In this document: positions 7,694-64,000 of the stretch, one piece after another | Layout: each line of letters opens with the position of its first letter | Numbering within the stretch: position 1 is the stretch's first letter | DNA from: Pyropia yezoensis | Taxonomy: Eukaryota; Rhodophyta; Bangiophyceae; Bangiales; Bangiaceae | Direction of reading: 5' to 3' | NCBI GenBank assembly: GCA_009829735.1 | Contig: CM020619.1 | Location: 2,858,590 to 2,922,589 of the forward strand | Length of the DNA stretch: 64,000 bases | The notes under the pieces: generated by a model | Told to the model about the DNA's origin: nothing | The model's input: the letters and a program-made list of their open reading frames with translations, nothing else | Database searches by the model: none | Made by a program: the position numbers and the translations under genes

Positions 7694-7763
<70 letters not shown>

Positions 7764-8737: not shown

Positions 8738-8950
8738 TCACCCCCGCAGCCGCCGGCGGAGGGCGGCCACCTCGGCGCGCAGCCGGTCGACGGTGCGCTC
8801 CCGGTCGGCGGCGGCGGCCGCCGCCGCCGCCAGCCGCGCCTCCAGCCCCGCCCGGTAGCGGGCGGCCCAGGCGCGCGCGCCCCGCGCGCTGATCCGGTTG
8901 TTCTCACACCGCGTCGCCGCACGGCGCTTCCGCACCTCCCCCGCCGCGGG

Positions 8951-8994
<44 letters not shown>

Positions 8995-23090: not shown

Positions 23091-23299
23091 TATTTGGTGG
23101 AGCAGCAGGGGATTGGAGTGTTTGAGAAGACCCATTTGGGAGCAGTGGTTGGGTTTTTCCTGTTCTGTCCTTTTCTGTGGTTTGGGAATTATTTGCACCC
23201 GGTCACGGGAATCCCATTCCTGGCTCCCCAACCCCTCTCTTGTGGTCTGGCGATCTTTGGACACGCAGGCAGCTGGACTGTGGCTGTCAAGAGACCAAC

Positions 23300-24988: not shown

Positions 24989-25119
24989 GGCAGGCGCTTT
25001 CCCCGAGTGTCTTCCCGAATATCCGACGGCAGGGTACTTCTACCTGTTCTCCCCTTGCGTGCCCGGAGAAAGGACGGCAGTTACCTGCTCAACTGGTAGC
25101 CGCCTGGACACCCTGTTTG

Positions 25120-27388: not shown

Positions 27389-27623
27389 TTACATTGACCG
27401 CCTTAGCGAACAGTAGTCCTTGACGCTTGAGCTTCTCTCGGAGATCCTTAGGGATGGTCGGGCACTGGTAGGACATATGGTCCTTCTTCTGGCACAGCCA
27501 ACAAGACCGGAAACGCTGGTTCTTGACTTGTTCAGGGGGCACCAAGGAAGGCTGCTTCTTGGAGTCGAACCACCCCATTTGTCACCTGACGCCACGGGAC
27601 AGGTCTCGCCAACAGTAGCAAAC
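27389..27623 (-). pseudogene. inverted gag zinc-knuckle fragment of the chromovirus family
   Basis: On the minus strand the sequence encodes a short piece of the same gag as copies 1, A and B: KKQPSLVPPEQVKNQRF then CWLCQKKDHMSYQC (CX2CX4HX4C) and LKRQGLLFAKAVN. It is cut at both sides and lies in the opposite direction to copy 1, so it comes from a separate inserted or rearranged copy. Confidence 0.8.
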
Positions 27624-46379: not shown

Positions 46380-46848
46380 TGTGGCAGTATTGACCCCCAG
46401 GTAGGGGGGCAACACGTGCCATGCAAGGGGCGGCAGGCCACTAGCCTGACCCATTCCTCCCCCTGCATTTGGGTCCATACTCCCTAAGTTTGGGATAGTT
46501 AGCTTAGTAGTAAATCCAACTTGGATTTGAGGGTTTTCTGCATTTATCGTCTTGAATTTTCGTGTGGCCCGGTGGGCAGGTGCTGGGGTGGGAGATTCTG
46601 AGTGGCGAGATTCTGAGTGGACCCTTGGGGGATAAGGGGAGGGACAGCGGGGCTTGGCCCTGCGTCCCCGTCCCGACCAAGAAACTGTTGGACCACACAC
46701 CATCCTCTTGTTTGTCAGTGGGGGGTTTGCCCCACAACAGGGACAGAGTGTGTGCGACTTGCACTACTTCCGGTTCCCCCGACACGGGAGGCAGCCCTTG
46801 TACACCGCCCCAACTTGGGTGCCGTGTGTGCGAGTGGTTTTTGCCACA
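46380..46848 (+). repeat. 5' LTR of retroelement family 2
   Basis: 469 bp, TGTGGCAGTA to TTTGCCACA, highly similar over its whole length to the solo LTR at 25749-26217. It is followed after two bases by the primer-binding site TGGTGGAGCAGCAGGGG (46851-46867) and a leader, so it is a 5' LTR. Confidence 0.85.
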
Positions 46849-47206: not shown

Positions 47207-47777
47207 TGTAGCATCCCTGGCCCCGACTTGGCGCCGACCCGGGACTACAACCAGAGGGCACCAGGTGCCAGAACACGCCCGCCGTGTGGTGATGGTTGGC
47301 GGCCGTGGCCCGTGCCCGGCACTGGGATGCGGTGGACTACGCTATCCACACGTGAGAGAGGGATTGCGGATGGGTTTTTGCATACTTATGAGGGACTTGA
47401 TTTGAGAGAATTTGAGTGTGAGATTAGTGAGTGGGAATAGAATTAGTAGTGATAGTGGCCCCCGACCTGACGAGGTTAGACTCGGGTCGGGGCCACTCGG
47501 GGTTATGGGGGGGCTACCTGGCCAACGTGCCGAGGCTCCCCCAGATGCACGTTAAGAGGGACAGCGAGGCGCCCTTGGCCCGCGCCCTCAGGAAAAAGAC
47601 AACTGCGCGTTTGCTTTCCTCTTCCCCGTGTGCACTACCGTGCGTATCTGTTTGCTCTGCGAGCAGGCACGTGAGGCAACAGGCATACCATTCTCGTAGT
47701 TCCCCTTTCTGTGTTACCTGTCCCTTTCCCCCGAGGGATATTGACACGTGTCTGAGAGGATCGAGTTTTATACCACA
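47207..47777 (+). repeat. 5' LTR of chromovirus copy A
   Basis: 571 bp, TGTAGCATCC to ATACCACA. The primer-binding site TGGTGGAGCAGCAGGGG begins at 47782. The last ~220 bp recur at 56107-56328 after the gap. The five bases to the left are GTATA. Confidence 0.85.
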
Positions 47778-47989
47778 TATTTGGTGGAGCAGCAGGGGAT
47801 GATTGGAGTGTTTGAGAAGAGACATTTGGGAGCAGCGGTTGGGTTGTTCCTGTTCTGTCTTTTTCTGTGGTTTGGGAATTATTTGCACCCGTTCACGGGA
47901 ATCCCATTCCTGGCTCTCCAACCCCTCTCTTGTGGTCGGGCGATCTTTGGACACGCAGGCAACTGGACTGTGGCTGTCAAGAGACCAAC

Positions 47990-49750
47990 ATGGCTACCCT
48001 CCCTGGCACGACGGTGCCCGAAGGGGTAGACCCCGCGTCCCTTGACGCATCCCTGGTCACCGCGGGGGACGGTGCCCAACCCGGCGTTCTCCCTACGGGT
48101 GAAGCAGACCTGGGCGTGACATCCGGTAGCGGACTGGAGTCCACAGGCGGCCAAGCACCACCTGCTCACGTTCCTCCGGCTGTTCCTCCTGTGGGAGCCA
48201 CCCCGGGGTCAACGGCGTTTGAGTCCGCTCGCAGCAGACGTCTTCCTCCTGTCGGTTCTACTCCTCAACCTCCAGGGATAGCCCCTGGTGTGTTTACTCC
48301 TGGACCCACACATGGCAGCTGGGTGTATACACCTCTTCCTGTGGGCACTAGCGATGCCAGAGGCACCGTTGTGACTGGTTCTACGGGTCTCCCTGAGACC
48401 TCGACTCCTGGGACCGGCCAAGCTTTTCCTCCCCTTGCATCCTATGGGGCGGGGAGCTCCAAGACCGGTAACCGGAGCAGCCGAAGGCGTCGGCGTCATC
48501 GCCGTCGCTCTAGCACCAGCGAGACCAGTTCCTCCAGCTCTGAGGAGGGATATGATTGGGATGCATCTCCCGGTCCCACCCGGCGCAGGCTAGTCGAGTT
48601 TGACTTCCCTGCCCACCAAGTGGGAGATGCCACCCTGAACAAGGTCACGTATTGGGGTAACTACCGGCTGGAGAACCAAGACCAAGGTTACACCCGGAAG
48701 ATGGCCAAGAAGATGGCGTCCCTGAACCGGCGAATGCAGCCGAGCTTCGGAGGACATCCTAAGTTTTCCGGGAAGAGACCGGCGCTTATCTTTGCCTTCC
48801 TGCGCCGGTTTGTCAAGGCATGCAATGACAACGATGTGTCTGAGGGCAAGGCTCTCTACCTCCTGGTTAACTTCATGACCGGAGAAGCGGAACAGCGGTT
48901 TGCACAGGTTCTACCAGACTCTGCCGGACACATTGTCGGACGTACCGTCGCGAGTTATCCGGAGGCGGTCAACTGGCTCCTGTCCAACTACGCTGACGCG
49001 GACTCTCTGCGTACAGTAGTCGGCAGGCTGAACCGGGCAACCATGGAAAGACAAGAGACTCCAGAGGCGTTCGCCCGTCGTGTCCGGGAGATGAGCGATG
49101 CTTGTGGCAACGTTTACCCTGAGGACAGGCTCAAGATGATCTTCTCGGAAGGGCTTCCTGAATATCTTCAAGTGGATGCGGAGAACTACAACCAGGAACA
49201 TCAAGAACGTACCTTCCAGCAGTTGATGGCCTACACCCAGGGCAAGTACCGGCAAGCCAGGGCCCTCCAAGCTCCCATGGTATCAACTCCCAAGCCGTTG
49301 TCGCGAGTTCGACCCGAACCCGACAAGTATAAGGGAGGTGATAGCCCTGTACCAGTACTCGCAGTTGGCGAGGCCTCACCCATGGGGTCAGGGGACAAGT
49401 GGGGCGGCTTCGTTTCTAAGGAGCAACCATCCCTGGTCGCCCCCAAGCAAGTCAAGAACCAGCGGTTCCGGTCTTGTTGGCTGTGCCAGAAGGAGGATCA
49501 CATGTCCTACCAGTGCCCGACCATTCCCAAGGACCTCCAGGAGAAACTCAAGCGTCAAGGACTGGTGTTTGCAAAGGCGGTCAACTGGGCTGACCGGCGA
49601 GCACCCTCCAAGATGGACCAGGCACAGGTACACGCAATCCGAGTGGCAACCTTACAGAGCATCACGGAGGCTCTGGCAAGGGAAGCTCCTACGGACTTTG
49701 ACCTGGAGACCGAAACCTCTAAGGACTCCTCGGACCCGGGAAACGAGTAG
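47990..49750 (+). CDS. gag: gag, chromovirus copy A
   Basis: A 586-residue ORF from ATG 47990; upstream codons in frame belong to the leader. Order: Pro/Thr-rich N-terminus, basic SR-rich stretch (SSRRRRRHRRRSSTSETSSS, ~165-185), acidic segment, then capsid-like domain (FLRRFVKACNDNDVSEGKAL, EAVNWLLSNYADADSL, ~260-400). A zinc knuckle CWLCQKEDHMSYQC (CX2CX4HX4C) lies near 500. Gag assembles the cytoplasmic particle and packages RNA. The stop TAG at 49748-49750 follows the slippery site GGGAAAC by one sense codon. Confidence 0.9.
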   Translation: MATLPGTTVPEGVDPASLDASLVTAGDGAQPGVLPTGEADLGVTSGSGLESTGGQAPPAHVPPAVPPVGATPGSTAFESARSRRLPPVGSTPQPPGIAPGVFTPGPTHGSWVYTPLPVGTSDARGTVVTGSTGLPETSTPGTGQAFPPLASYGAGSSKTGNRSSRRRRRHRRRSSTSETSSSSSEEGYDWDASPGPTRRRLVEFDFPAHQVGDATLNKVTYWGNYRLENQDQGYTRKMAKKMASLNRRMQPSFGGHPKFSGKRPALIFAFLRRFVKACNDNDVSEGKALYLLVNFMTGEAEQRFAQVLPDSAGHIVGRTVASYPEAVNWLLSNYADADSLRTVVGRLNRATMERQETPEAFARRVREMSDACGNVYPEDRLKMIFSEGLPEYLQVDAENYNQEHQERTFQQLMAYTQGKYRQARALQAPMVSTPKPLSRVRPEPDKYKGGDSPVPVLAVGEASPMGSGDKWGGFVSKEQPSLVAPKQVKNQRFRSCWLCQKEDHMSYQCPTIPKDLQEKLKRQGLVFAKAVNWADRRAPSKMDQAQVHAIRVATLQSITEALAREAPTDFDLETETSKDSSDPGNE

Positions 49751-52700
49751 GGCAGGCGCTCTCCCCAAGTGTCTTCCCGAATCTCCGACGGCAGGGTACT
49801 TCTACCTGTTCTCCCCTTGCGTGCCGGGAGAAAGGACGGCAGTTACCCGCTCAACCGGTAGCCGCCTGGACACCCTGTTTGTTCAAGGGGACATTGCTCG
49901 TCCTGCGTAAAGAAAACCTCAAGATTAATGCTCGTGTGCGTGTGGGGGATAGTCTCCCCCAAGCTGTTACGCCGGTGGTTGACACGGGAGCCGGACCAAG
50001 CGTCATCACTGAGAACCTGTTACCTCCGGGCTGGCGTCGACATGCCTGGAGAGCGCCTACCCGGACCCATATCGTCGACGCTTCGGGTCAAACCCTACGA
50101 CCGCTTGGCCGTCTTTCTGTCGCCATCTATGTCAACAATGAACCAATGCTTTTTCCCTTTCTAGTAGTCAAGACCCTATCAGTCCCCCTCATCCTAGGCT
50201 GGGACTTCCAGAAGCAGCATGTCAAGAGCATCCTACCCGGAGAAGGGAAGGTCCAGTTCAACCATGGGTTTGTGTCACCGGTATTGGAACATCTGGACGC
50301 CAAGGTTCGTGTAGCCAAGAGCAAGAGGGAACGCATCCCACCCTCTACCTTGACTCTCTTCAAACCGGTGCTCCTACCTCCTCGCTCGGAGACCAAGGTT
50401 CAAGTAACGACCCGGATTGCAGGTCAATGGCTGATCTACGGACGTAAGGAATTTCTGGCGAAACACCGGTTATACTTGGCCCACGGACATCACAAGAAGG
50501 TAGAAAGGCACACCCCGTTCTCGGTGCTAATCGTCAACGTGAGCCGGAAGCCAATAACCCTCGCCAAGGGCACCCGAGTTGGTACAGCAGAGCCTTACCG
50601 GGGATCCGCCCGTGCTATGAGCAAGGAAGACCTCCTGAACCTGCAACAAGAACTGGCATCCAACTTGACGGCCTTAGACGTACCTCCGAAGCAAGAGCAG
50701 GCTGGCAGCGCTACTCCGAAACCCGAACAAGCACCACCCGGGATGCCGAAGGTCAAGCAAGAAAATGTCCCTCCCGACTTGAATGAGGCACTGGAGAAGC
50801 TTCTCCAGGAATATCGGCACCTGTGGTCGGGAGAGCTGGGCAAGATGGACGCCACTCTACACCGGATTCAACTCAAGCCGGAAGCTAAGCCAGTACACAT
50901 GCAACCATATCGGGCCGGACCTCATCGCCGGGATGAGATTGAGAAGCAGGTTAACAAGATGCTCAAGATGGATGTTATCGAGCCGTCTGATGGCGAGTGG
51001 GCTTTCCCGGTGGTAGTCGTCCCGAAAACCGGCGGTCACTTCCGTTTCTGCGTTGACAACCGGCGCCTGAACGAGATGACAGTCAAGGACGTATACCCGA
51101 TACCCCGGATGGATGATTGCCTCGACTTTCTTGGTGATGCCACCCTCTTCTCGACGCTGGATTGTAATGCCGGTTACTGGCAGATCCCTCTGGCTGACGA
51201 GGACATGGACAAGACCACGTTCACGTGCCACCTGGGACTATTCCGGTGCAAGCGTCTTCCTTTTGGTCTCACCAATGCTCCGGCGACCTTCCAAAGAGCC
51301 ATCGACATCATCCTGTCCGGGCTAAGGTGGAGAACATGTTTGGTCTACCTGGACGACATTATCGTTTTCTCCAAGACCCCAGCGGAACACCTGGAGCACC
51401 TTCGGGAGGTCCTGGCCCTCCTGTCCAAGGCTGGAGTTACCCTCAAGGCCGAGAAGTGCCACCTGTTTGAGACTGAGGTGGAGTATCTGGGGCATGTGCT
51501 GAGTCCGGGGGAGCTCCGAGTCAATGAGAAGAGCATCAAGGCCCTCCGGCATGCACGGCAACCCAAAACCCAGACGGAACTCAAGAGCTTCCTGGGTATG
51601 TGCAACGTCTATCGCCGGTTCGTACGGGACTATGCTCTGATTGCCCGGCCACTGACCAAGCTGACCAGCAAGAAGCTTCCCGCACAACTCCCGGTGTTCG
51701 ACGAGAAGCAGACCGCGGCCTTCGAAGAGCTCAAGAAGCGCCTGACCACCACTCCAGTACTGGCGTTACCCAAGCGGGAGGGCCAGTTTGTTCTGGAGAC
51801 GGATGCCTGTGGCGTCCAGGTGGGGTGCTCACTACTCCAGCAGCAACCTGATGGGCACTTTCTCCCGATAGGCTACTACAGTCGCGTCTTGACTCCAGCT
51901 GAGAAGAACTATTCCACGACCGAGCGCGAGTGCTTGGCAGTCGTCTGGGCTTGCTTCCTGTTACGGCCATATCTTGAAGGACAAGAGTTCCTCATCCGGA
52001 TGGATCACGCCAGCCTAAGATGGCTGCTATGTATGGACAGCAGTCAAGGAAGGGTCGCCCGGTGGCGCCTACGCCTTTCGGAGTTCAAGTACAAGGTGTG
52101 CACCAGAGCAGGGAGGGAGCACCACTGCGCTGACACCATGTCCCGGCTGGAGACTCCTGCAGCCGATACCGGTCCTATCCCGGAGGAAATACCTTGCTTC
52201 ATCCTCCCGAATGTCGGACGTGGCTGGCACGCTCCCCTGTATGAGACACCTGAAGCTCATCAACCGGTGACCATTCACCGGATGCTGGAGGCACAACTGA
52301 CGGATCCTCAATGCTTGGAGCTTCACCACCAAATGGACCTGAACCGGAACAGTCGTTTCTCCGAGTCTACGGACGGACTCCTAGTACGGGTGTCACCCTT
52401 CGATGGGGCCACTCAAGTCTACGTACCCCGGGGCCTACGAGCTGACATTCTACGCCTGGAGCACTCGTCTCCCCAGGCCGGACATCCTGGTATCAATCGG
52501 ATGTATGCTTCCATGAGACGACACTATTACTGGGAAACCATGGCCAGTGACGTCCATAAGTACCTGGAGGCTTGTGTTTCGTGTGCAAGGAACCGGTTGT
52601 CCCAGAGGAAGAAGACTTCTAAGCTACGCCTATTCCCTGCGGCGGAGCCCTTTGCAAGCTTAAGCATGGACATCCTGGGGCCCCTACCTGAAACATCCAG

Positions 52701-53835
52701 TGGCAACATATACCTGCTCATCATTTGTGACCGGTTCTCCAAGTTCACTCGAGCAATCCCGCTGAGGACCATCACGGCTCTGGATGTCACGTCAGCCTTT
52801 TGCGAGTACTGGATAGCTGCCTACGGCCCTCCAGACTCCGTCTTAACCGACAACGGTCCCCAGTTTGCATCCCTGTTCTTCCAAGGAGTCTGTGACCTGA
52901 TGGGCATCAAGAACTTGTACACTACGACGTACCACCCTCAAACGAACGGCCAGGTGGAACGATTCAACCGGACCCTAGTAGACATGCTACGGCACTACGT
53001 GGAGGAGCACCAAGAAGACTGGGACGAGCTCCTGGCTGTCCTCACTCTAGCCTACAACTCCCGAGTTCACCGGACAACGGGAGTCGCTCCACTCGACTTT
53101 GTCACCCCAAGGCGGCTGACCAACTTCTCCCTGGAAAGAATACCAGATGGTCTCCAGCCTGCACTGAAGTCAGGTCCCAAGGCAAAGGATGAGTTCCTGG
53201 AACAACTGAAGCTCCTGCTCCCAAGAGTTAAGGAGTCAATCTCGAAGACCCAGGAGCGATACAAGCGGGGCTATGACAAGGGCGTTCGGGAAAAGAACAA
53301 GGAACTGGGTGGCGACTGGGTTTTTGTGGACAACCATAGCAAGACCCGGGGGAAGCTGGAATCGAAGACGGATGGACCTTATGAGATCCTGAATACGGAC
53401 GGTTGGACCTTTCTTCTAGACGTGGATGGCTCCCCGTACCGCGTGAGCAGCGACCATGTCACCCGAGCTCCACAGCCAAGCCAACGGGACTTGACCCGGC
53501 GCAAGCGGGCCCCAGTACCCTGGCTATCCCAAGAAGAAGGTCGGGAATATGTCTACGTCAAGTTTGTGGACCATGCCTGGAGAGACGGACGCCTGTACCT
53601 GCGAGTACGCTGGTTCGGTTTTAACCCGGCAGATGATACCTGGGAACCCTCAAACCGGCTACCCATCGCGGATGTCTGTGCCTACACGCGACGGAACGGG
53701 ATAGAGGGCACTCCAGTGGCCAGAGCCGGCAAGATTCTGGAGTCGGACTCGGAGGAGGACCAAGAGGATGGGGCCAACCAAGACCCTCGGGACGAGCCGA
53801 GTTCATCCGCAACGGATGCGGAACAAGAGGATTGA
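49723..53835 (+). CDS. pol: pol: protease, reverse transcriptase, RNase H, integrase, chromodomain
   Basis: Open in the -1 frame relative to gag from 49723. There is no early ATG before the protease, which supports synthesis as Gag-Pol. Residues counted from 49879: aspartic protease VVDTGAGPS (~33); RT with FRFCVDNRRLN, LDCNAGYWQIPL and YLDDIIVF (~489); RNase H starting ETDACG (~639). In the integrase, the zinc-binding H-x-H-C-C part (HSSPQAGHPG ... CVSCARN, ~861-900) is followed by catalytic Asp in SMDILGPLP (~929), Asp in TDNGPQF (~990) and Glu in GQVERFNR (~1026). The chromodomain YLRVRWFGFNPADDTWEP ends near 1253. All catalytic residues are present and no stop interrupts the frame. The acidic C-terminus ends SATDAEQED. 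The chromodomain suggests targeted integration into modified chromatin. Confidence 0.93.
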   Translation, partial: GLLGPGKRVGQALSPSVFPNLRRQGTSTCSPLACREKGRQLPAQPVAAWTPCLFKGTLLVLRKENLKINARVRVGDSLPQAVTPVVDTGAGPSVITENLLPPGWRRHAWRAPTRTHIVDASGQTLRPLGRLSVAIYVNNEPMLFPFLVVKTLSVPLILGWDFQKQHVKSILPGEGKVQFNHGFVSPVLEHLDAKVRVAKSKRERIPPSTLTLFKPVLLPPRSETKVQVTTRIAGQWLIYGRKEFLAKHRLYLAHGHHKKVERHTPFSVLIVNVSRKPITLAKGTRVGTAEPYRGSARAMSKEDLLNLQQELASNLTALDVPPKQEQAGSATPKPEQAPPGMPKVKQENVPPDLNEALEKLLQEYRHLWSGELGKMDATLHRIQLKPEAKPVHMQPYRAGPHRRDEIEKQVNKMLKMDVIEPSDGEWAFPVVVVPKTGGHFRFCVDNRRLNEMTVKDVYPIPRMDDCLDFLGDATLFSTLDCNAGYWQIPLADEDMDKTTFTCHLGLFRCKRLPFGLTNAPATFQRAIDIILSGLRWRTCLVYLDDIIVFSKTPAEHLEHLREVLALLSKAGVTLKAEKCHLFETEVEYLGHVLSPGELRVNEKSIKALRHARQPKTQTELKSFLGMCNVYRRFVRDYALIARPLTKLTSKKLPAQLPVFDEKQTAAFEELKKRLTTTPVLALPKREGQFVLETDACGVQVGCSLLQQQPDGHFLPIGYYSRVLTPAEKNYSTTERECLAVVWACFLLRPYLEGQEFLIRMDHASLRWLLCMDSSQGRVARWRLRLSEFKYKVCTRAGREHHCADTMSRLETPAADTGPIPEEIPCFILPNVGRGWHAPLYETPEAHQPVTIHRMLEAQLTDPQCLELHHQMDLNRNSRFSESTDGLLVRVSPFDGATQVYVPRGLRADILRLEHSSPQAGHPGINRMYASMRRHYYWETMASDVHKYLEACVSCARNRLSQRKKTSKLRLFPAAEPFASLSMDILGPLPETSSGNIYLLIICDRFSKFTRAIPLRTITALDVTSAFCEYWIAAYGPPDSVLTDNGPQFASLFFQGVCDLMGIKNLYTTTYHPQTNGQVERFNRTLVDMLRHYVEEHQEDWDELLAVLTLAYNSRVHRTTGVAPLDFVTPRRLTNFSLERIPDGLQPALKSGPKAKDEFLEQLKLLLPRVKESISKTQERYKRGYDKGVREKNKELGGDWVFVDNHSKTRGKLESKTDGPYEILNTDGWTFLLDVDGSPYRVSSDHVTRAPQPSQRDLTRRKRAPVPWLSQEEGREYVYVKFVDHAWRDGRLYLRVRWFGFNPADDTWEPSNRLPIADVCAYTRRNGIEGTPVARAGKILESDSEEDQEDGANQDPRDEPSSSATDAEQED
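49738..49744 (+). promoter_or_regulatory. GGGAAAC -1 frameshift site between gag and pol
   Basis: In the gag frame the bases read G GGA AAC, the exact X XXY YYZ arrangement for -1 slippage, two codons before TAG 49748-49750. The -1 frame is open from 49723 through the end of pol, so slippage here yields a Gag-Pol fusion. GGGAAAC is a known functional heptamer in retroviral gag-pro junctions. A 7-bp perfect hairpin (TTCTCCC / GGGAGAA, 49809-49832) lies downstream, further away than usual. Confidence 0.7.
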
Positions 53836-53980
53836 GAAGAAGGGAACGGGTATATCAAGGAGAACACGCAATACAAGCATGGAACAATCAAGGAAAACAA
53901 GCACCCGCTCGGGCAACCCTTCTCTCCCCCTCTTCCCTCCTCGCTTCTCCCAAGACCCTCACCCTCCTTGCCTCCAACTA

Positions 53981-55460
53981 CTACTCCCGGCGCGGACGCT
54001 GAGCCGCGGGAGTGTCCTCCAGCGCTGCCTCCGCGGCACGACGGGAACCGGAGGAAGACGGGATGACGTAGTGCGGTGGACGCGGTGCATCCCGGTATGA
54101 CGCCATCGGAGTAGTACCGGTAGTTGCCGGGGGCTCCCGCTCATCCAGATATGCCCGTCGGCGCCCCTGGAAGCCAGTGAAGGTTTCTGACCACTGCTGG
54201 GCCAAGCCATGCCGCGTCAAGGTCGCCAGAAGTTCGCCAACCACCGGGCTGTTCGACATCTGGCCGCTGTCCGCGCAAGCAAACACCCGGTCAACCACGT
54301 TGTTTAAGACGCTGGCGTAAGTACCCAGTACCAGGGAGGACCCAACGCCTTCAACCTGCACCGGAAGACGACCCAGCTGGTCTTCAATCATACCGACGTC
54401 GTACTGGTCGCATGTCGGACCACCTTGGACCAGGTACCAGTCAGGCACCCGGAAGCAGGTAAGGCGCAGAGTCGGCGCCGGAATCTCGAACCGCCCCGAG
54501 GATGACACCACCGGACGGTCCACAACGGCCCCCGAAACCGGAGTACCCAACTCCAGCGGAGGCACAGCGCCGCCGGCGTTGGAAGAAGGCGTCCGAGGCG
54601 GAGCGGCCGGAGTGGTAGGCGACCGCACGGTCACCCCCAGACTCGCCGCAGACAGGCGCGGTGCCGGAGGAGCTTGAAGTACCGGCACAGCCGGAACAGG
54701 GCGTGAACGCGCCGGCGACGGTTCAGGCGAGGCCACCGGGGCGACAGGTGCAACAGGAGGAAGCGGAGCCGCCGCAGACGCCTGACCGACCGCCGCGGCC
54801 CATCCCGACTCCTGCACCGGCGGCCCAACTGGCAGAAGATCAAGGGCGGCCGGGGCAGGAAAGCTACCTAGCTGCGGCGACGCCGGAAGCGGCGTCGCCA
54901 GCTGCACCTTGGCCGGAGAAGACTGGTAGACCACCTGCGCCCAACCGAAGCCATCCCGACGCGGGCGGTTCTGGTCGGCAATCGCGTTCAAGAAGTTCCG
55001 GTCATGCACCGGCACCAGACGCCGGAAGTCAGTCATCGCCTGGAAGAGCCCCTTGTACTCTTCGTCCTGGCTGCACAGGAAGTCGACGGTCAACTTGTCG
55101 ACAATCCAGACCATCAGGAGGTCAGGGAAAAACCAAGCCGGTTGGACACCAAGACCTCGTGAAGCCAGTGGTTGGCCGCCAAGACTGTCATCTCGGACGT
55201 GTACATCATGTACTGGATCGAGTGGAAGAAGCCCTTGATCGACGCCTGAGTCAAGGCGTCCAAGAAGTACCAGGTGAAGGGGATGCTGGAAGGAGCAAAC
55301 CCGACCGGGATCTCGACTTCCTGCTGCTGCGGGATGACCTTGGGTAGTACGCCGCCCGGTTAGCCTTATCCAGCTTCCAGAACTCCTGATGTTTGCAGCT
55401 CACGAGGAAGTCACGCTGACGGCCGCGTCGCTCGCCTTGCTCCCGTGCCGGTGACAACTT
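53981..55460 (-). pseudogene. opposite-strand ORF downstream of pol, copy A, two 1-base deletions
   Basis: Same antisense ORF as at 62532-64000, but two bases are missing: one A near 55135 and one G near 55343. The protein is therefore broken into three frames. The largest intact piece (53981-55114) holds the Pro/Ala linker, the FRVPDWYLVQGGPTC block and the basic C-terminus RRAAEAALEDTPAAQRPRRE. The errors lie close to the assembly gap, so they may be sequence errors. Confidence 0.7.
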
Positions 55461-55606
55461 GGAGTACTTCCGGGTCAGGAAAGGCGGCTCCTAGAGCGAC
55501 CATGCTCGGACGGGGGTCGCAGTTCAGGCTCCCCGACCCCTTGAGCGCCTCGTCCCAGACCTTGAGCGCCCGGTGACGTACCCTTCCTCCTCCGGCCACC
55601 GGAGAA

Positions 55607-56106
55607 NNNNNNNNNNNNNNNNNNNNNNNNNNNNNNNNNNNNNNNNNNNNNNNNNNNNNNNNNNNNNNNNNNNNNNNNNNNNNNNNNNNNNNNNNNNNNN
55701 NNNNNNNNNNNNNNNNNNNNNNNNNNNNNNNNNNNNNNNNNNNNNNNNNNNNNNNNNNNNNNNNNNNNNNNNNNNNNNNNNNNNNNNNNNNNNNNNNNNN
55801 NNNNNNNNNNNNNNNNNNNNNNNNNNNNNNNNNNNNNNNNNNNNNNNNNNNNNNNNNNNNNNNNNNNNNNNNNNNNNNNNNNNNNNNNNNNNNNNNNNNN
55901 NNNNNNNNNNNNNNNNNNNNNNNNNNNNNNNNNNNNNNNNNNNNNNNNNNNNNNNNNNNNNNNNNNNNNNNNNNNNNNNNNNNNNNNNNNNNNNNNNNNN
56001 NNNNNNNNNNNNNNNNNNNNNNNNNNNNNNNNNNNNNNNNNNNNNNNNNNNNNNNNNNNNNNNNNNNNNNNNNNNNNNNNNNNNNNNNNNNNNNNNNNNN
56101 NNNNNN
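55607..56106. other. 500-N assembly gap
   Basis: Exactly 500 unknown bases, most likely a placeholder. By comparison with copy A it should contain at least the first ~348 bp of an LTR plus the 5' end of the antisense ORF. Confidence 0.95.
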
Positions 56107-56540
56107 AGAGGGACAGCGAGGCGCCCTTGGCCCGCGCCCTCAGGAAAAAGACAACTGCGCGTTTGCTTTCCTCTTCCCCGTGTGCACTACCGTGCGTATC
56201 TGTTTGCTCTGCGAGCAGGCACGTGAGGCAACAGGCATACCATTCTCGTAGTTCCCCTTTCTGTGTTACCTGTCCCTTTCCCCGAGGGATATTGACACGT
56301 GTCTGAGAGGATCGAGTTTTATACCACATATTTGGTGGAGCAGCAGGGGATGATTGGAGTGTTTGAGAAGAGACATTTGGGAGCAGCGGTTGGGTTGTTC
56401 CTGTTCTGTCTTTTTCTGTGGTTTGGGAATTATTTGCACCCGTTCACGGGAATCCCATTCCTGGCTCTCCAACCCCTCTCTTGTGGTCGGGCGATCTTTG
56501 GACACGCAGGCAACTGGACTGTGGCTGTCAAGAGACCAAC

Positions 56541-58301
56541 ATGGCTACCCTCCCTGGCACGACGGTGCCCGAAGGGGTAGACCCCGCGTCCCTTGACGCA
56601 TCCCTGGTCACCGCGGGGGACGGTGCCCAACCCGGCGTTCTCCCTACGGGTGAAGCAGACCTGGGCGTGACATCCGGTAGCGGACTGGAGTCCACAGGCG
56701 GCCAAGCACCACCTGCTCACGTTCCTCCGGCTGTTCCTCCTGTGGGAGCCACCCCGGGGTCAACGGCGTTTGAGTCCGCTCGCAGCAGACGTCTTCCTCC
56801 TGTCGGTTCTACTCCTCAACCTCCAGGGATAGCCCCTGGTGTGTTTACTCCTGGACCCACACATGGCAGCTGGGTGTATACACCTCTTCCTGTGGGCACT
56901 AGCGATGCCAGAGGCACCGTTGTGACTGGTTCTACGGGTCTCCCTGAGACCTCGACTCCTGGGACCGGCCAAGCTTTTCCTCCCCTTGCATCCTATGGGG
57001 CGGGGAGCTCCAAGACCGGTAACCGGAGCAGCCGAAGGCGTCGGCGTCATCGCCGTCGCTCTAGCACCAGCGAGACCAGTTCCTCCAGCTCTGAGGAGGG
57101 ATATGATTGGGATGCATCTCCCGGTCCCACCCGGCGCAGGCTAGTCGAGTTTGACTTCCCTGCCCACCAAGTGGGAGATGCCACCCTGAACAAGGTCACG
57201 TATTGGGGTAACTACCGGCTGGAGAACCAAGACCAAGGTTACACCCGGAAGATGGCCAAGAAGATGGCGTCCCTGAACCGGCGAATGCAGCCGAGCTTCG
57301 GAGGACATCCTAAGTTTTCCGGGAAGAGACCGGCGCTTATCTTTGCCTTCCTGCGCCGGTTTGTCAAGGCATGCAATGACAACGATGTGTCTGAGGGCAA
57401 GGCTCTCTACCTCCTGGTTAACTTCATGACCGGAGAAGCGGAACAGCGGTTTGCACAGGTTCTACCAGACTCTGCCGGACACATTGTCGGACGTACCGTC
57501 GCGAGTTATCCGGAGGCGGTCAACTGGCTCCTGTCCAACTACGCTGACGCGGACTCTCTGCGTACAGTAGTCGGCAGGCTGAACCGGGCAACCATGGAAA
57601 GACAAGAGACTCCAGAGGCGTTCGCCCGTCGTGTCCGGGAGATGAGCGATGCTTGTGGCAACGTTTACCCTGAGGACAGGCTCAAGATGATCTTCTCGGA
57701 AGGGCTTCCTGAATATCTTCAAGTGGATGCGGAGAACTACAACCAGGAACATCAAGAACGTACCTTCCAGCAGTTGATGGCCTACACCCAGGGCAAGTAC
57801 CGGCAAGCCAGGGCCCTCCAAGCTCCCATGGTATCAACTCCCAAGCCGTTGTCGCGAGTTCGACCCGAACCCGACAAGTATAAGGGAGGTGATAGCCCTG
57901 TACCAGTACTCGCAGTTGGCGAGGCCTCACCCATGGGGTCAGGGGACAAGTGGGGCGGCTTCGTTTCTAAGGAGCAACCATCCCTGGTCGCCCCCAAGCA
58001 AGTCAAGAACCAGCGGTTCCGGTCTTGTTGGCTGTGCCAGAAGGAGGATCACATGTCCTACCAGTGCCCGACCATTCCCAAGGACCTCCAGGAGAAACTC
58101 AAGCGTCAAGGACTGGTGTTTGCAAAGGCGGTCAACTGGGCTGACCGGCGAGCACCCTCCAAGATGGACCAGGCACAGGTACACGCAATCCGAGTGGCAA
58201 CCTTACAGAGCATCACGGAGGCTCTGGCAAGGGAAGCTCCTACGGACTTTGACCTGGAGACCGAAACCTCTAAGGACTCCTCGGACCCGGGAAACGAGTA
58301 G
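56541..58301 (+). CDS. gag: gag, chromovirus copy B
   Basis: The 586-residue protein is identical to the gag at 47990-49750, including the SR-rich stretch, capsid-like domain and CX2CX4HX4C knuckle. The slippery GGGAAAC (58289-58295) and the TAG stop are conserved. Confidence 0.9.
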   Translation: MATLPGTTVPEGVDPASLDASLVTAGDGAQPGVLPTGEADLGVTSGSGLESTGGQAPPAHVPPAVPPVGATPGSTAFESARSRRLPPVGSTPQPPGIAPGVFTPGPTHGSWVYTPLPVGTSDARGTVVTGSTGLPETSTPGTGQAFPPLASYGAGSSKTGNRSSRRRRRHRRRSSTSETSSSSSEEGYDWDASPGPTRRRLVEFDFPAHQVGDATLNKVTYWGNYRLENQDQGYTRKMAKKMASLNRRMQPSFGGHPKFSGKRPALIFAFLRRFVKACNDNDVSEGKALYLLVNFMTGEAEQRFAQVLPDSAGHIVGRTVASYPEAVNWLLSNYADADSLRTVVGRLNRATMERQETPEAFARRVREMSDACGNVYPEDRLKMIFSEGLPEYLQVDAENYNQEHQERTFQQLMAYTQGKYRQARALQAPMVSTPKPLSRVRPEPDKYKGGDSPVPVLAVGEASPMGSGDKWGGFVSKEQPSLVAPKQVKNQRFRSCWLCQKEDHMSYQCPTIPKDLQEKLKRQGLVFAKAVNWADRRAPSKMDQAQVHAIRVATLQSITEALAREAPTDFDLETETSKDSSDPGNE

Positions 58302-61300
58302 GGCAGGCGCTCTCCCCAAGTGTCTTCCCGAATCTCCGACGGCAGGGTACTTCTACCTGTTCTCCCCTTGCGTGCCGGGAGAAAGGACGGCAGTTACCCG
58401 CTCAACCGGTAGCCGCCTGGACACCCTGTTTGTTCAAGGGGACATTGCTCGTCCTGCGTAAAGAAAACCTCAAGATTAATGCTCGTGTGCGTGTGGGGGA
58501 TAGTCTCCCCCAAGCTGTTACGCCGGTGGTTGACACGGGAGCCGGACCAAGCGTCATCACTGAGAACCTGTTACCTCCGGGCTGGCGTCGACATGCCTGG
58601 AGAGCGCCTACCCGGACCCATATCGTCGACGCTTCGGGTCAAACCCTACGACCGCTTGGCCGTCTTTCTGTCGCCATCTATGTCAACAATGAACCAATGC
58701 TTTTTCCCTTTCTAGTAGTCAAGACCCTATCAGTCCCCCTCATCCTAGGCTGGGACTTCCAGAAGCAGCATGTCAAGAGCATCCTACCCGGAGAAGGGAA
58801 GGTCCAGTTCAACCATGGGTTTGTGTCACCGGTATTGGAACATCTGGACGCCAAGGTTCGTGTAGCCAAGAGCAAGAGGGAACGCATCCCACCCTCTACC
58901 TTGACTCTCTTCAAACCGGTGCTCCTACCTCCTCGCTCGGAGACCAAGGTTCAAGTAACGACCCGGATTGCAGGTCAATGGCTGATCTACGGACGTAAGG
59001 AATTTCTGGCGAAACACCGGTTATACTTGGCCCACGGACATCACAAGAAGGTAGAAAGGCACACCCCGTTCTCGGTGCTAATCGTCAACGTGAGCCGGAA
59101 GCCAATAACCCTCGCCAAGGGCACCCGAGTTGGTACAGCAGAGCCTTACCGGGGATCCGCCCGTGCTATGAGCAAGGAAGACCTCCTGAACCTGCAACAA
59201 GAACTGGCATCCAACTTGACGGCCTTAGACGTACCTCCGAAGCAAGAGCAGGCTGGCAGCGCTACTCCGAAACCCGAACAAGCACCACCCGGGATGCCGA
59301 AGGTCAAGCAAGAAAATGTCCCTCCCGACTTGAATGAGGCACTGGAGAAGCTTCTCCAGGAATATCGGCACCTGTGGTCGGGAGAGCTGGGCAAGATGGA
59401 CGCCACTCTACACCGGATTCAACTCAAGCCGGAAGCTAAGCCAGTACACATGCAACCATATCGGGCCGGACCTCATCGCCGGGATGAGATTGAGAAGCAG
59501 GTTAACAAGATGCTCAAGATGGATGTTATCGAGCCGTCTGATGGCGAGTGGGCTTTCCCGGTGGTAGTCGTCCCGAAAACCGGCGGTCACTTCCGTTTCT
59601 GCGTTGACAACCGGCGCCTGAACGAGATGACAGTCAAGGACGTATACCCGATACCCCGGATGGATGATTGCCTCGACTTTCTTGGTGATGCCACCCTCTT
59701 CTCGACGCTGGATTGTAATGCCGGTTACTGGCAGATCCCTCTGGCTGACGAGGACATGGACAAGACCACGTTCACGTGCCACCTGGGACTATTCCGGTGC
59801 AAGCGTCTTCCTTTTGGTCTCACCAATGCTCCGGCGACCTTCCAAAGAGCCATCGACATCATCCTGTCCGGGCTAAGGTGGAGAACATGTTTGGTCTACC
59901 TGGACGACATTATCGTTTTCTCCAAGACCCCAGCGGAACACCTGGAGCACCTTCGGGAGGTCCTGGCCCTCCTGTCCAAGGCTGGAGTTACCCTCAAGGC
60001 CGAGAAGTGCCACCTGTTTGAGACTGAGGTGGAGTATCTGGGGCATGTGCTGAGTCCGGGGGAGCTCCGAGTCAATGAGAAGAGCATCAAGGCCCTCCGG
60101 CATGCACGGCAACCCAAAACCCAGACGGAACTCAAGAGCTTCCTGGGTATGTGCAACGTCTATCGCCGGTTCGTACGGGACTATGCTCTGATTGCCCGGC
60201 CACTGACCAAGCTGACCAGCAAGAAGCTTCCCGCACAACTCCCGGTGTTCGACGAGAAGCAGACCGCGGCCTTCGAAGAGCTCAAGAAGCGCCTGACCAC
60301 CACTCCAGTACTGGCGTTACCCAAGCGGGAGGGCCAGTTTGTTCTGGAGACGGATGCCTGTGGCGTCCAGGTGGGGTGCTCACTACTCCAGCAGCAACCT
60401 GATGGGCACTTTCTCCCGATAGGCTACTACAGTCGCGTCTTGACTCCAGCTGAGAAGAACTATTCCACGACCGAGCGCGAGTGCTTGGCAGTCGTCTGGG
60501 CTTGCTTCCTGTTACGGCCATATCTTGAAGGACAAGAGTTCCTCATCCGGATGGATCACGCCAGCCTAAGATGGCTGCTATGTATGGACAGCAGTCAAGG
60601 AAGGGTCGCCCGGTGGCGCCTACGCCTTTCGGAGTTCAAGTACAAGGTGTGCACCAGAGCAGGGAGGGAGCACCACTGCGCTGACACCATGTCCCGGCTG
60701 GAGACTCCTGCAGCCGATACCGGTCCTATCCCGGAGGAAATACCTTGCTTCATCCTCCCGAATGTCGGACGTGGCTGGCACGCTCCCCTGTATGAGACAC
60801 CTGAAGCTCATCAACCGGTGACCATTCACCGGATGCTGGAGGCACAACTGACGGATCCTCAATGCTTGGAGCTTCACCACCAAATGGACCTGAACCGGAA
60901 CAGTCGTTTCTCCGAGTCTACGGACGGACTCCTAGTACGGGTGTCACCCTTCGATGGGGCCACTCAAGTCTACGTACCCCGGGGCCTACGAGCTGACATT
61001 CTACGCCTGGAGCACTCGTCTCCCCAGGCCGGACATCCTGGTATCAATCGGATGTATGCTTCCATGAGACGACACTATTACTGGGAAACCATGGCCAGTG
61101 ACGTCCATAAGTACCTGGAGGCTTGTGTTTCGTGTGCAAGGAACCGGTTGTCCCAGAGGAAGAAGACTTCTAAGCTACGCCTATTCCCTGCGGCGGAGCC
61201 CTTTGCAAGCTTAAGCATGGACATCCTGGGGCCCCTACCTGAAACATCCAGTGGCAACATATACCTGCTCATCATTTGTGACCGGTTCTCCAAGTTCACT

Positions 61301-62386
61301 CGAGCAATCCCGCTGAGGACCATCACGGCTCTGGATGTCACGTCAGCCTTTTGCGAGTACTGGATAGCTGCCTACGGCCCTCCAGACTCCGTCTTAACCG
61401 ACAACGGTCCCCAGTTTGCATCCCTGTTCTTCCAAGGAGTCTGTGACCTGATGGGCATCAAGAACTTGTACACTACGACGTACCACCCTCAAACGAACGG
61501 CCAGGTGGAACGATTCAACCGGACCCTAGTAGACATGCTACGGCACTACGTGGAGGAGCACCAAGAAGACTGGGACGAGCTCCTGGCTGTCCTCACTCTA
61601 GCCTACAACTCCCGAGTTCACCGGACAACGGGAGTCGCTCCACTCGACTTTGTCACCCCAAGGCGGCTGACCAACTTCTCCCTGGAAAGAATACCAGATG
61701 GTCTCCAGCCTGCACTGAAGTCAGGTCCCAAGGCAAAGGATGAGTTCCTGGAACAACTGAAGCTCCTGCTCCCAAGAGTTAAGGAGTCAATCTCGAAGAC
61801 CCAGGAGCGATACAAGCGGGGCTATGACAAGGGCGTTCGGGAAAAGAACAAGGAACTGGGTGGCGACTGGGTTTTTGTGGACAACCATAGCAAGACCCGG
61901 GGGAAGCTGGAATCGAAGACGGATGGACCTTATGAGATCCTGAATACGGACGGTTGGACCTTTCTTCTAGACGTGGATGGCTCCCCGTACCGCGTGAGCA
62001 GCGACCATGTCACCCGAGCTCCACAGCCAAGCCAACGGGACTTGACCCGGCGCAAGCGGGCCCCAGTACCCTGGCTATCCCAAGAAGAAGGTCGGGAATA
62101 TGTCTACGTCAAGTTTGTGGACCATGCCTGGAGAGACGGACGCCTGTACCTGCGAGTACGCTGGTTCGGTTTTAACCCGGCAGATGATACCTGGGAACCC
62201 TCAAACCGGCTACCCATCGCGGATGTCTGTGCCTACACGCGACGGAACGGGATAGAGGGCACTCCAGTGGCCAGAGCCGGCAAGATTCTGGAGTCGGACT
62301 CGGAGGAGGACCAAGAGGATGGGGCCAACCAAGACCCTCGGGACGAGCCGAGTTCATCCGCAACGGATGCGGAACAAGAGGATTGA
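58274..62386 (+). CDS. pol: pol, chromovirus copy B
   Basis: Protein identical to copy A pol, with the protease DTG, RT YLDD, RNase H, integrase D-D-E and chromodomain all intact and no stops. The open frame starts at 58274 in the -1 phase relative to gag. Confidence 0.93.
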   Translation, partial: GLLGPGKRVGQALSPSVFPNLRRQGTSTCSPLACREKGRQLPAQPVAAWTPCLFKGTLLVLRKENLKINARVRVGDSLPQAVTPVVDTGAGPSVITENLLPPGWRRHAWRAPTRTHIVDASGQTLRPLGRLSVAIYVNNEPMLFPFLVVKTLSVPLILGWDFQKQHVKSILPGEGKVQFNHGFVSPVLEHLDAKVRVAKSKRERIPPSTLTLFKPVLLPPRSETKVQVTTRIAGQWLIYGRKEFLAKHRLYLAHGHHKKVERHTPFSVLIVNVSRKPITLAKGTRVGTAEPYRGSARAMSKEDLLNLQQELASNLTALDVPPKQEQAGSATPKPEQAPPGMPKVKQENVPPDLNEALEKLLQEYRHLWSGELGKMDATLHRIQLKPEAKPVHMQPYRAGPHRRDEIEKQVNKMLKMDVIEPSDGEWAFPVVVVPKTGGHFRFCVDNRRLNEMTVKDVYPIPRMDDCLDFLGDATLFSTLDCNAGYWQIPLADEDMDKTTFTCHLGLFRCKRLPFGLTNAPATFQRAIDIILSGLRWRTCLVYLDDIIVFSKTPAEHLEHLREVLALLSKAGVTLKAEKCHLFETEVEYLGHVLSPGELRVNEKSIKALRHARQPKTQTELKSFLGMCNVYRRFVRDYALIARPLTKLTSKKLPAQLPVFDEKQTAAFEELKKRLTTTPVLALPKREGQFVLETDACGVQVGCSLLQQQPDGHFLPIGYYSRVLTPAEKNYSTTERECLAVVWACFLLRPYLEGQEFLIRMDHASLRWLLCMDSSQGRVARWRLRLSEFKYKVCTRAGREHHCADTMSRLETPAADTGPIPEEIPCFILPNVGRGWHAPLYETPEAHQPVTIHRMLEAQLTDPQCLELHHQMDLNRNSRFSESTDGLLVRVSPFDGATQVYVPRGLRADILRLEHSSPQAGHPGINRMYASMRRHYYWETMASDVHKYLEACVSCARNRLSQRKKTSKLRLFPAAEPFASLSMDILGPLPETSSGNIYLLIICDRFSKFTRAIPLRTITALDVTSAFCEYWIAAYGPPDSVLTDNGPQFASLFFQGVCDLMGIKNLYTTTYHPQTNGQVERFNRTLVDMLRHYVEEHQEDWDELLAVLTLAYNSRVHRTTGVAPLDFVTPRRLTNFSLERIPDGLQPALKSGPKAKDEFLEQLKLLLPRVKESISKTQERYKRGYDKGVREKNKELGGDWVFVDNHSKTRGKLESKTDGPYEILNTDGWTFLLDVDGSPYRVSSDHVTRAPQPSQRDLTRRKRAPVPWLSQEEGREYVYVKFVDHAWRDGRLYLRVRWFGFNPADDTWEPSNRLPIADVCAYTRRNGIEGTPVARAGKILESDSEEDQEDGANQDPRDEPSSSATDAEQED
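58289..58295 (+). promoter_or_regulatory. GGGAAAC -1 frameshift site, copy B
   Basis: Same heptamer, phase and distance to the gag stop as in copy A; the downstream hairpin is at 58360-58383. Confidence 0.7.
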
Positions 62387-62531
62387 GAAGAAGGGAACGG
62401 GTATATCAAGGAGAACACGCAATACAAGCATGGAACAATCAAGGAAAACAAGCACCCGCTCGGGCAACCCTTCTCTCCCCCTCTTCCCTCCTCGCTTCTC
62501 CCAAGACCCTCACCCTCCTTGCCTCCAACTA

Positions 62532-64000
62532 CTACTCCCGGCGCGGACGCTGAGCCGCGGGAGTGTCCTCCAGCGCTGCCTCCGCGGCACGACGGGAACC
62601 GGAGGAAGACGGGATGACGTAGTGCGGTGGACGCGGTGCATCCCGGTATGACGCCATCGGAGTAGTACCGGTAGTTGCCGGGGGCTCCCGCTCATCCAGA
62701 TATGCCCGTCGGCGCCCCTGGAAGCCAGTGAAGGTTTCTGACCACTGCTGGGCCAAGCCATGCCGCGTCAAGGTCGCCAGAAGTTCGCCAACCACCGGGC
62801 TGTTCGACATCTGGCCGCTGTCCGCGCAAGCAAACACCCGGTCAACCACGTTGTTTAAGACGCTGGCGTAAGTACCCAGTACCAGGGAGGACCCAACGCC
62901 TTCAACCTGCACCGGAAGACGACCCAGCTGGTCTTCAATCATACCGACGTCGTACTGGTCGCATGTCGGACCACCTTGGACCAGGTACCAGTCAGGCACC
63001 CGGAAGCAGGTAAGGCGCAGAGTCGGCGCCGGAATCTCGAACCGCCCCGAGGATGACACCACCGGACGGTCCACAACGGCCCCCGAAACCGGAGTACCCA
63101 ACTCCAGCGGAGGCACAGCGCCGCCGGCGTTGGAAGAAGGCGTCCGAGGCGGAGCGGCCGGAGTGGTAGGCGACCGCACGGTCACCCCCAGACTCGCCGC
63201 AGACAGGCGCGGTGCCGGAGGAGCTTGAAGTACCGGCACAGCCGGAACAGGGCGTGAACGCGCCGGCGACGGTTCAGGCGAGGCCACCGGGGCGACAGGT
63301 GCAACAGGAGGAAGCGGAGCCGCCGCAGACGCCTGACCGACCGCCGCGGCCCATCCCGACTCCTGCACCGGCGGCCCAACTGGCAGAAGATCAAGGGCGG
63401 CCGGGGCAGGAAAGCTACCTAGCTGCGGCGACGCCGGAAGCGGCGTCGCCAGCTGCACCTTGGCCGGAGAAGACTGGTAGACCACCTGCGCCCAACCGAA
63501 GCCATCCCGACGCGGGCGGTTCTGGTCGGCAATCGCGTTCAAGAAGTTCCGGTCATGCACCGGCACCAGACGCCGGAAGTCAGTCATCGCCTGGAAGAGC
63601 CCCTTGTACTCTTCGTCCTGGCTGCACAGGAAGTCGACGGTCAACTTGTCGACAATCCAGACCATCAGGAGGTCAGGGAAAAACCAAAGCCGGTTGGACA
63701 CCAAGACCTCGTGAAGCCAGTGGTTGGCCGCCAAGACTGTCATCTCGGACGTGTACATCATGTACTGGATCGAGTGGAAGAAGCCCTTGATCGACGCCTG
63801 AGTCAAGGCGTCCAAGAAGTACCAGGTGAAGGGGATGCTGGAAGGAGCAAACCCGACCGGGATCTCGACTTCCTGCTGCTGCGGGATGACCTTGGGGTAG
63901 TACGCCGCCCGGTTAGCCTTATCCAGCTTCCAGAACTCCTGATGTTTGCAGCTCACGAGGAAGTCACGCTGACGGCCGCGTCGCTCGCCTTGCTCCCGTG
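62532..64000 (-). CDS. unknown protein encoded antisense to the chromovirus, copy B, partial
   Basis: An uninterrupted minus-strand frame of at least 488 codons that runs off the window edge, so its start is not seen. It begins 145 bp after the pol stop, tail to tail. The N-terminal ~165 residues look like a folded domain rich in aromatic residues (FWKLDKANRAAYYPK, FTWYFLDALTQASIKGFFHS, VLAANHWLHEVLVSNRLWFF, MTDFRRLVPVHDRNFLNAI). A Pro/Ala/Val linker follows, then a second compact part (LTCFRVPDWYLVQGGPTC, YASVLNNVVDRVFACAD, ELLATLTRHGLAQQW) and a basic Arg-rich end that could be a nuclear signal. No known gag, envelope, tether or host domain was recognised. Codon use is like gag/pol, not like the GC-extreme host genes. 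Additional antisense ORFs are known in some plant Ty3/gypsy elements. Confidence 0.75.
   Translation of the reverse strand, partial: REQGERRGRQRDFLVSCKHQEFWKLDKANRAAYYPKVIPQQQEVEIPVGFAPSSIPFTWYFLDALTQASIKGFFHSIQYMMYTSEMTVLAANHWLHEVLVSNRLWFFPDLLMVWIVDKLTVDFLCSQDEEYKGLFQAMTDFRRLVPVHDRNFLNAIADQNRPRRDGFGWAQVVYQSSPAKVQLATPLPASPQLGSFPAPAALDLLPVGPPVQESGWAAAVGQASAAAPLPPVAPVAPVASPEPSPARSRPVPAVPVLQAPPAPRLSAASLGVTVRSPTTPAAPPRTPSSNAGGAVPPLELGTPVSGAVVDRPVVSSSGRFEIPAPTLRLTCFRVPDWYLVQGGPTCDQYDVGMIEDQLGRLPVQVEGVGSSLVLGTYASVLNNVVDRVFACADSGQMSNSPVVGELLATLTRHGLAQQWSETFTGFQGRRRAYLDEREPPATTGTTPMASYRDAPRPPHYVIPSSSGSRRAAEAALEDTPAAQRPRRE

What the first reader, a model, noticed from the sequence alone, without database searches (positions are those of the whole stretch)
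62532..64000. Chromovirus carries a long opposite-strand ORF of unknown function after pol
Both chromovirus copies have, 145 bp beyond the pol stop, a minus-strand reading frame of more than 488 codons. It has two compact-looking domains, a Pro/Ala linker and a basic C-terminus. It is intact in copy B. I recognise no known domain. A protein expressed antisense to the genome needs its own promoter in or near the 3' LTR and could regulate gag-pol, act as a nuclear factor or be a captured host gene. Antisense extra ORFs are established for some plant Ty3/gypsy elements such as maize Grande; whether this one is related is unknown.
Basis: partly seen in the sequence, partly recalled or inferred. 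Interest (0 to 1): 0.78.

Follow-up and report, generated by a model that had tools for sequence, protein, structure and literature searches.

The report
Conserved backward gene in algal retrotransposon
A jumping element present in hundreds of copies in a red seaweed carries, on the opposite strand to its usual genes, an extra gene for a 705-residue protein that resembles nothing we could find, yet evolution has kept its protein sequence.

Summary
The antisense ORF is real and longer than reported: 705 codons from an ATG at 64649 (beyond the window edge) to 62532, between pol and the 3' LTR of a Ty3/gypsy chromovirus in an assembly whose scaffold sizes match Pyropia yezoensis. It behaves as a conserved protein-coding gene. 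Two subfamilies differ there by 22 nonsynonymous and 55 synonymous changes (omega 0.18; 0.06 for residues 96-395). Eight copies down to 79% protein identity give omega 0.12-0.36 in 28 of 28 pairs. Differences seen in one copy only look neutral (0.94), as post-insertion decay should. A 30-mer of the gene occurs 451 times in the genome, a pol chromodomain 30-mer 473 times. No Pfam, NCBIfam, PHROG, PDB, viral or prokaryotic relative was found, and structure prediction failed. The arrangement matches the antisense extra ORFs of Grande, RIRE2, Retand and Boty; the one domain test possible (Retand's TRP28) was negative. I read it as an accessory, probably nuclear, protein that helps the element propagate. 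Expression and localisation are untested.

The parts
62532..64000 (-). antisense ORF (aORF); continues past the window edge to its start codon at 64649 (705 aa in all). Residues 96-395 are the most constrained part, 396-525 a Pro/Ala-rich linker, 526-660 a second constrained part; between the two subfamilies residues 1-95 and 661-705 show no clear constraint
53981..55606 (-). the same aORF in assembly copy A, cut by the N gap and out of frame from 55135 on, where A and B begin to differ by single bases
58274..62386 (+). pol (protease, RT, RNase H, integrase, chromodomain match); open from 58274, overlapping the end of gag in another frame
62117..62206 (+). chromodomain match inside pol (PF00385, E 0.00077, 19.8 bits, below Pfam's cut-off of 25.1)
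56418..58301 (+). gag frame (first ATG at 56541), with a weak CCHC zinc-knuckle match (E 0.019, below the cut-off)
62387..62531 (.). 145-bp spacer between the pol stop and the aORF stop; each of the 24 loci L009-L032 holds a gapless match across pol end, spacer and aORF end (62201-62700)
47207..47777 (+). 5' LTR (571 bp, TG...CA, GTATA on its left); the matching 3' LTR is at 64834-65404, outside the window, with 4 differences of 571 and GTATA on its right
55607..56106 (.). 500-N assembly gap between assembly copies A and B
56107..56329 (+). right-hand part of an LTR at the left edge of copy B

Best explanation
The ORF is a genuine accessory gene of a red-algal chromovirus, read from the strand opposite to gag-pol. 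It encodes a 705-aa protein with two constrained parts joined by a Pro/Ala-rich linker. Shown here: a reading frame kept in frame, and an amino-acid sequence kept by purifying selection, through several subfamilies, lying beside pol and the 3' LTR in the loci whose context was read and that hold the ORF. Inferred: it is translated from its own minus-strand transcript that starts in the 3' LTR or the leader next to it, and the soluble protein acts in trans on the element's own cycle, probably in the nucleus (control of sense transcription, import or integration). A pure repressor of the element is less likely, because an element should not keep a purely self-harming protein.
For:: 22 N and 55 S majority differences between subfamilies (omega 0.18, binomial p 2.8e-13); residues 96-395 3 N and 23 S (0.06, p 8e-10); 51 of 77 differences at third positions; the five other frames of the same DNA hold 6-19 stops; omega 0.12-0.36 in 28 of 28 pairs of 8 copies; length changes L042 -21, L045 +9, L049 +15 are multiples of 3; changes shared by 4 or more copies N1:S12, singletons N82:S39 (omega 0.94), as for pol (1:19; 253:104); the leader just before the ATG has indels against the window copy in 8 of 8 subfamily-II loci L033-L040, with a net frame change in 5 of 8; the ORF has no indel in the same 8 of 8; 451 aORF against 473 pol 30-mers with up to 3 mismatches (reversed-pattern controls 0); same pol-aORF junction in 24 of 24 loci; highest 19-residue hydropathy 1.49, so no clear membrane helix.
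Against: Nothing shows transcription or translation. Variants shared by only 2-3 young copies look neutral in the aORF (N35:S16, 0.98) but not in pol (42:44, 0.39), so recent constraint on the aORF may be weaker, or those copies are sisters of dead ones. In the frame control one opposite-strand frame also scored low (0.24 between subfamilies, 0.13 for changes in 4 or more copies) because its third positions coincide with those of the aORF; it holds 13 stops. The minus-strand TATA is not well conserved (4 of 8). No localisation test was possible, and the protein is charge-neutral (68 K+R, 69 D+E). The step from 'constrained protein' to 'nuclear accessory factor' rests on analogy.
Confidence: 0.5

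Rival explanations
1. The protein is coding and selected, but its role is structural: a second particle or chaperone protein that joins Gag in the cytoplasm.
For: Selection and linkage evidence as above. The low-confidence model drew helices and no strands, mainly in two blocks separated by the linker, a layout that also occurs in Gag proteins (recalled).
Against: The model has mean pLDDT 32.6 and proves nothing. Profile comparison with the element's own Gag gave probability 0.1%, and there is no Pfam match of any kind.
Confidence: 0.22
2. It is a captured host gene whose protein acts on the host (for example against silencing) rather than on the element's replication steps.
For: An orphan accessory protein kept by selection would look like this, and none of the searches can exclude a diverged host ancestor.
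Against: The 63 matches scored are 97-100% identical family members; no separate host paralogue was seen, but only 63 of 24927 first-look candidates were scored.
Confidence: 0.18
3. The antisense RNA, not the protein, is the functional product (sense-antisense control or dsRNA), and the ORF is incidental.
For: Antisense RNAs of retrotransposons without coding capacity are known, e.g. micropia (PMC7264820).
Against: RNA function does not predict frame-specific third-position change, net in-frame length changes, or an ORF free of indels next to a leader full of them.
Confidence: 0.05
4. It is a chance open frame in GC-rich DNA.
For: Long mechanical frames are common in this 65% GC window.
Against: None of 2000 simulations exceeded 566 codons, and omega is far below 1 in divergent copies.
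Confidence: 0.01

Closest known systems
Antisense additional ORFs between pol and 3' LTR (aORF-3R): maize Grande gene23, rice RIRE2, Silene Retand ORF4, Phaseolus PvRetro13
   Same: Position between pol and 3' LTR, antisense, present in most copies, protein conserved like other element proteins, function unknown (PMC7264820, parts 1 and 2 of 3 read; PMC11963269, passages).
   Different: Host is a red alga and the element has a chromodomain match, whereas Retand is a non-chromovirus lineage. No TRP28 domain (PF04195) or any other Pfam hit. No expression data here; Grande gene23 has its own promoter and a nuclear product.
Boty of Botrytis cinerea with antisense gene brtn
   Same: LTR retrotransposon outside plants with an antisense gene between pol and 3' LTR (PMC7264820; title of Zhao 2011 in a reference list).
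HTLV-1 HBZ
   Same: Antisense, nuclear protein of a retroelement (PMC11963269 passages); HTLV has an antisense promoter in the 3' LTR (PMC7264820).
   Different: Retrovirus of people. A spliced message of the HBZ kind (recalled) would need an acceptor before our ATG; the AG there is present in 1 of 8 lineages.

Membership tests
Ty3/gypsy chromovirus (the element) | protease, RT, RNase H, integrase in gypsy order | tested here: met
   RVP residues 20-113 (20.5 bits, cut-off 20.7), RVT_1 381-540, RT_RNaseH 634-736, H2C2 849-906, rve 923-1020
Ty3/gypsy chromovirus (the element) | chromodomain after integrase | tested here: inconclusive
   PF00385 at 1230-1259, E 0.00077 but below Pfam's gathering score; the motif looks right by eye. 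No RT tree was made
Ty3/gypsy chromovirus (the element) | paired LTRs with target-site duplication | tested here: met
   571-bp LTRs, 4 differences, GTATA on both sides, taking copy A's 5' LTR and copy B's 3' LTR as the ends
antisense aORF-3R | antisense ORF between pol and 3' LTR | tested here: met
antisense aORF-3R | present in most copies of the family | tested here: met
   451 against 473 30-mer matches; 46 of 69 exact aORF 30-mers on contig C1 have an exact chromodomain 30-mer at the expected 1552-1556 bp (exact matches on both sides required, so a lower bound)
antisense aORF-3R | protein conserved by selection | tested here: met
antisense aORF-3R | transcribed antisense | not testable with these tools
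   no RNA data
Retand/TRP28 proteins | TRP28 domain PF04195 | tested here: not met
   no Pfam family at E <= 10 in 8 of 8 members of A3
Grande gene23 | sequence homology | not tested
   gene23 sequence not held; only Pfam and general searches were made
env-like ORF | sense orientation and transmembrane helix | tested here: not met
   antisense; highest 19-residue hydropathy 1.49

The most novel reading that the evidence does not exclude
An orphan antisense-encoded protein that a chromovirus lineage needs for efficient propagation, unrelated to any known retroelement protein. Because it is made from a different RNA than the packaged genome, its long-term conservation would imply a way for a copy to favour its own protein (action at its own locus in the nucleus) or very few active source copies.
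Probability: 0.3. Interest if true: 0.78.

Novelty: new variant of a known kind. Interest (0 to 1): 0.6.

Why it matters
The roles of antisense ORFs of plant LTR retrotransposons are described as not yet determined (PMC7264820). Here one family offers hundreds of copies over a wide range of divergence in a single genome, a mapped start codon and two constrained blocks. That makes protein-level tests direct, in red algae, for which the papers listed by my searches (10 of 237, 12 of 17, 1 of 1) showed no described example in title or opening abstract.

Tried and rejected
Homologue searches, negative except for P0001, a 583-aa, 97% identical protein with no source named: whole protein and two regions against 5.8 billion proteins (in one search only the 7993 candidates sharing most words were scored); IMG/VR and GTDB scans (pol in IMG/VR); phage records; Pfam, NCBIfam, PHROGs; PDB by sequence and profile. 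The PDB hits to Rieske subunits (best E 0.0066) lie mainly on the Pro/Ala-rich linker and I treat them as composition matches. No collection of eukaryotic genomes besides the window's own was searchable for distant relatives.

Spliced antisense message: the CAG|GTAAC donor-like word in the LTR is kept in 8 of 8 lineages, but the AG just before the ATG in 1 of 8; dropped. LTR TATA promoter: TATAAA kept in 4 of 8; kept only as a weak lead. An earlier count said 5 of 8; 4 of 8 is right. Gag-derived origin: hhalign probability 0.1%. Codon usage did not separate the frame from others (correlation with pol 0.62 for the aORF, 0.67 for a neighbouring frame). The six-frame control gave one opposite-strand frame a low omega too (0.24 and 0.13), explained in the Against line. 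Structure model: mean pLDDT 32.6, so no fold search was run. Of six stretches picked, three (L041, L044, L046) held no aORF, and no pol end or LTR either. L047, L048 and L043 carry stops or frame breaks and were left out of the 28 pairs. L042 and L049, which carry 2 and 3 internal stops, were kept. One search's leader counts put L014 and L018 in both groups with partial leaders; one search replaces them.

Full report
What is there. The minus-strand frame starting at 62532 is open to the window edge (488 codons). In the adjoining genome it runs to 64871 stop to stop (779 codons). The genome has scaffolds of 43,592,136, 34,331,705 and 29,385,039 bases, matching the 43.6, 34.3 and 29.4 Mbp scaffolds of Pyropia yezoensis (PMC7423979, passages); that paper.0% of the genome repeats, with LTR retrotransposons predominant.

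The element. pol holds protease, RT, RNase H and integrase, and a chromodomain match below Pfam's cut-off. LTRs of 571 bp lie at 47207-47777 and 64834-65404, differ at 4 positions, and are flanked by GTATA on the outer sides. The ORF therefore lies inside the element, between pol and the 3' LTR.

One insertion or two copies. Copies A and B differ by six single bases. One is at 47728 in A, 56280 in B, 173 bp right of the gap; five lie at 55135-55598 in A, left of the gap. The 7.4 kb between is identical. With the shared outer GTATA, this is one insertion assembled twice or a very recent LTR-internal-LTR-internal-LTR tandem; the data do not separate these. The two are not independent evidence, and copy A's broken frame is probably a contig-edge error (inference).

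Where the gene starts. In the 8 subfamily-II loci L033-L040 the 184-bp leader upstream of the ATG at 64649 carries indels relative to the window copy in 8 of 8, with a net change that is not a multiple of 3 in 5 of 8, and the open frames reach back to different stops. The ORF itself has no indel in the same 8 of 8. In subfamily I, 2 of 22 leader rows have an indel, each of one base, leaving out L014 and L018, whose leaders are partial. The ATG is present in 8 of 8 lineages compared. The gene is 705 codons.

Is it selected as protein. Young copies first. Of the 40 best DNA matches, I read 24 loci. Of 21 rows holding the full ORF, 17 have neither frameshift nor stop. For pol it is 6 of 18, but pol is longer; disabling events per kb are 0.170 against 0.307. 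The loci were picked by aORF similarity, which favours intact aORFs. In a protein search 48 of the 63 scored matches have no internal stop, again a picked set. Changes in one copy only are neutral (N82:S39, omega 0.94), changes in 4 or more copies are almost all silent (N1:S12, 0.04), and pol behaves alike (253:104, 0.98; 1:19, 0.02). Changes in 2-3 copies look neutral in the aORF (35:16, 0.98) but constrained in pol (42:44, 0.39); this counts against uniformly strong recent constraint.

Between subfamilies. A second subfamily at about 95% identity has copies of its own: 40 of 40 matches listed with L014's second copy as query are 99-100% alike. 8 further loci were read, and with the copies in L014 and L018, which lack the first 345 bases, that makes 10 rows against 21 rows of subfamily I. 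Majority differences: N22:S55, omega 0.18, p 2.8e-13 by binomial test against the singleton spectrum. By part: residues 1-95 7:3 (1.03), 96-395 3:23 (0.06), 396-525 5:15 (0.16), 526-660 5:13 (0.18), 661-705 2:1 (0.89).

Deeper lineages. Searches with diverged copies listed places at 77-92% identity besides the queries themselves, many spanning the full query. Nine copies outside the young set were read. Four (L045, L050, L051, L052) have no internal stop; L042 and L049 have 2 and 3 stops; L047, L048 and L043 have stops or frame breaks. Nei-Gojobori omega over the 28 pairs of L009, L033, L051, L045, L050, L052, L042, L049 is 0.12-0.36. Protein identity of these to the window copy falls to 79% (L049). 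Length changes of L042, L045 and L049 are -21, +9 and +15. The pairs are not independent, and each copy carries its own post-insertion changes, which push omega up.

Linkage. An aORF 30-mer with up to 3 mismatches occurs 451 times in the genome, a chromodomain 30-mer 473 times, reversed-pattern controls 0. Among the exact matches on contig C1, 46 of 69 aORF sites have an exact chromodomain site on the other strand 1552-1556 bp on; exactness on both sides is required, so this is a lower bound. A 500-bp stretch across pol end, spacer and aORF end matched without gaps in 24 of 24 loci. The 3' LTR adjoins the leader in 7 of 7 diverged copies aligned with the window's, each with different outer flanks.

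What the protein is. No relative was found beyond a 583-aa, 97% identical protein without a named source. No Pfam, NCBIfam or PHROG match, and no PDB match that I hold meaningful. The model is unusable (mean pLDDT 32.6). No membrane helix is apparent. So it is an orphan; the two-part layout is inferred from constraint and composition only.

How it may work. Since it is on the other strand, gag-pol RNA cannot encode it and it needs a minus-strand transcript. The only TATAA word in the 3' LTR and leader, on either strand, is on the minus strand at the outer LTR edge, placed to read inward, but TATAAA is kept in 4 of 8 lineages. A pyrimidine-rich block about 20-45 bases before the ATG is largely kept. 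Promoter position is therefore open; in Grande it lies in the region upstream of gene23 (PMC7264820). A protein kept by selection in the lineages that spread is more likely to help the element than only to restrain it (inference). Grande's protein and HBZ are nuclear, so I place this protein in the nucleus with moderate confidence.

Comparison and novelty. The arrangement meets the description of aORF-3R elements (PMC7264820, parts 1 and 2 of 3 read). It fails the TRP28 test that 97% of Retand clusters meet. Homology to Grande gene23, RIRE2 or Boty brtn was not tested. Searches for red-algal or chromovirus antisense ORFs (open-licence PMC only, lists capped) showed no description of this one in the titles and abstract openings listed. 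The one paper holding both 'antisense ORF' and 'chromovirus' is on Retand, a non-chromovirus lineage. I file it as a new variant of a known kind.

Noticed in passing
window 47555-55606 and 56107-64158: A near-perfect 8-kb repeat on both sides of a 500-N gap, with its six differences near the gap: assembly duplication or very recent tandem of one LTR element.
   Followed up: yes
window 58274-58301: The pol frame opens 28 nt before the gag stop in another frame, which suggests a frameshift between gag and pol.
   Followed up: no
window 22618-26642: Decayed relative of the same family (86-91% identical pieces, one inverted piece at 27394-27613 at 85%), interrupted by 25749-26217, which recurs at 93% identity at 46380-46848 just left of the 5' LTR.
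   Followed up: partly
L042, L053: A diverged copy whose 3' LTR is 94.8% like the window's while its pol end and aORF are about 85% alike: LTRs are either more constrained or exchanged by recombination.
   Followed up: no
L014 and L018: A subfamily-I copy and a subfamily-II copy of the aORF lie in inverted orientation about 0.7 kb apart, with LTR sequence between, at two places in the genome.
   Followed up: no
window 7055-9139: 12-base-step tandem repeats with inverted partners about 1.3 kb apart.
   Followed up: no
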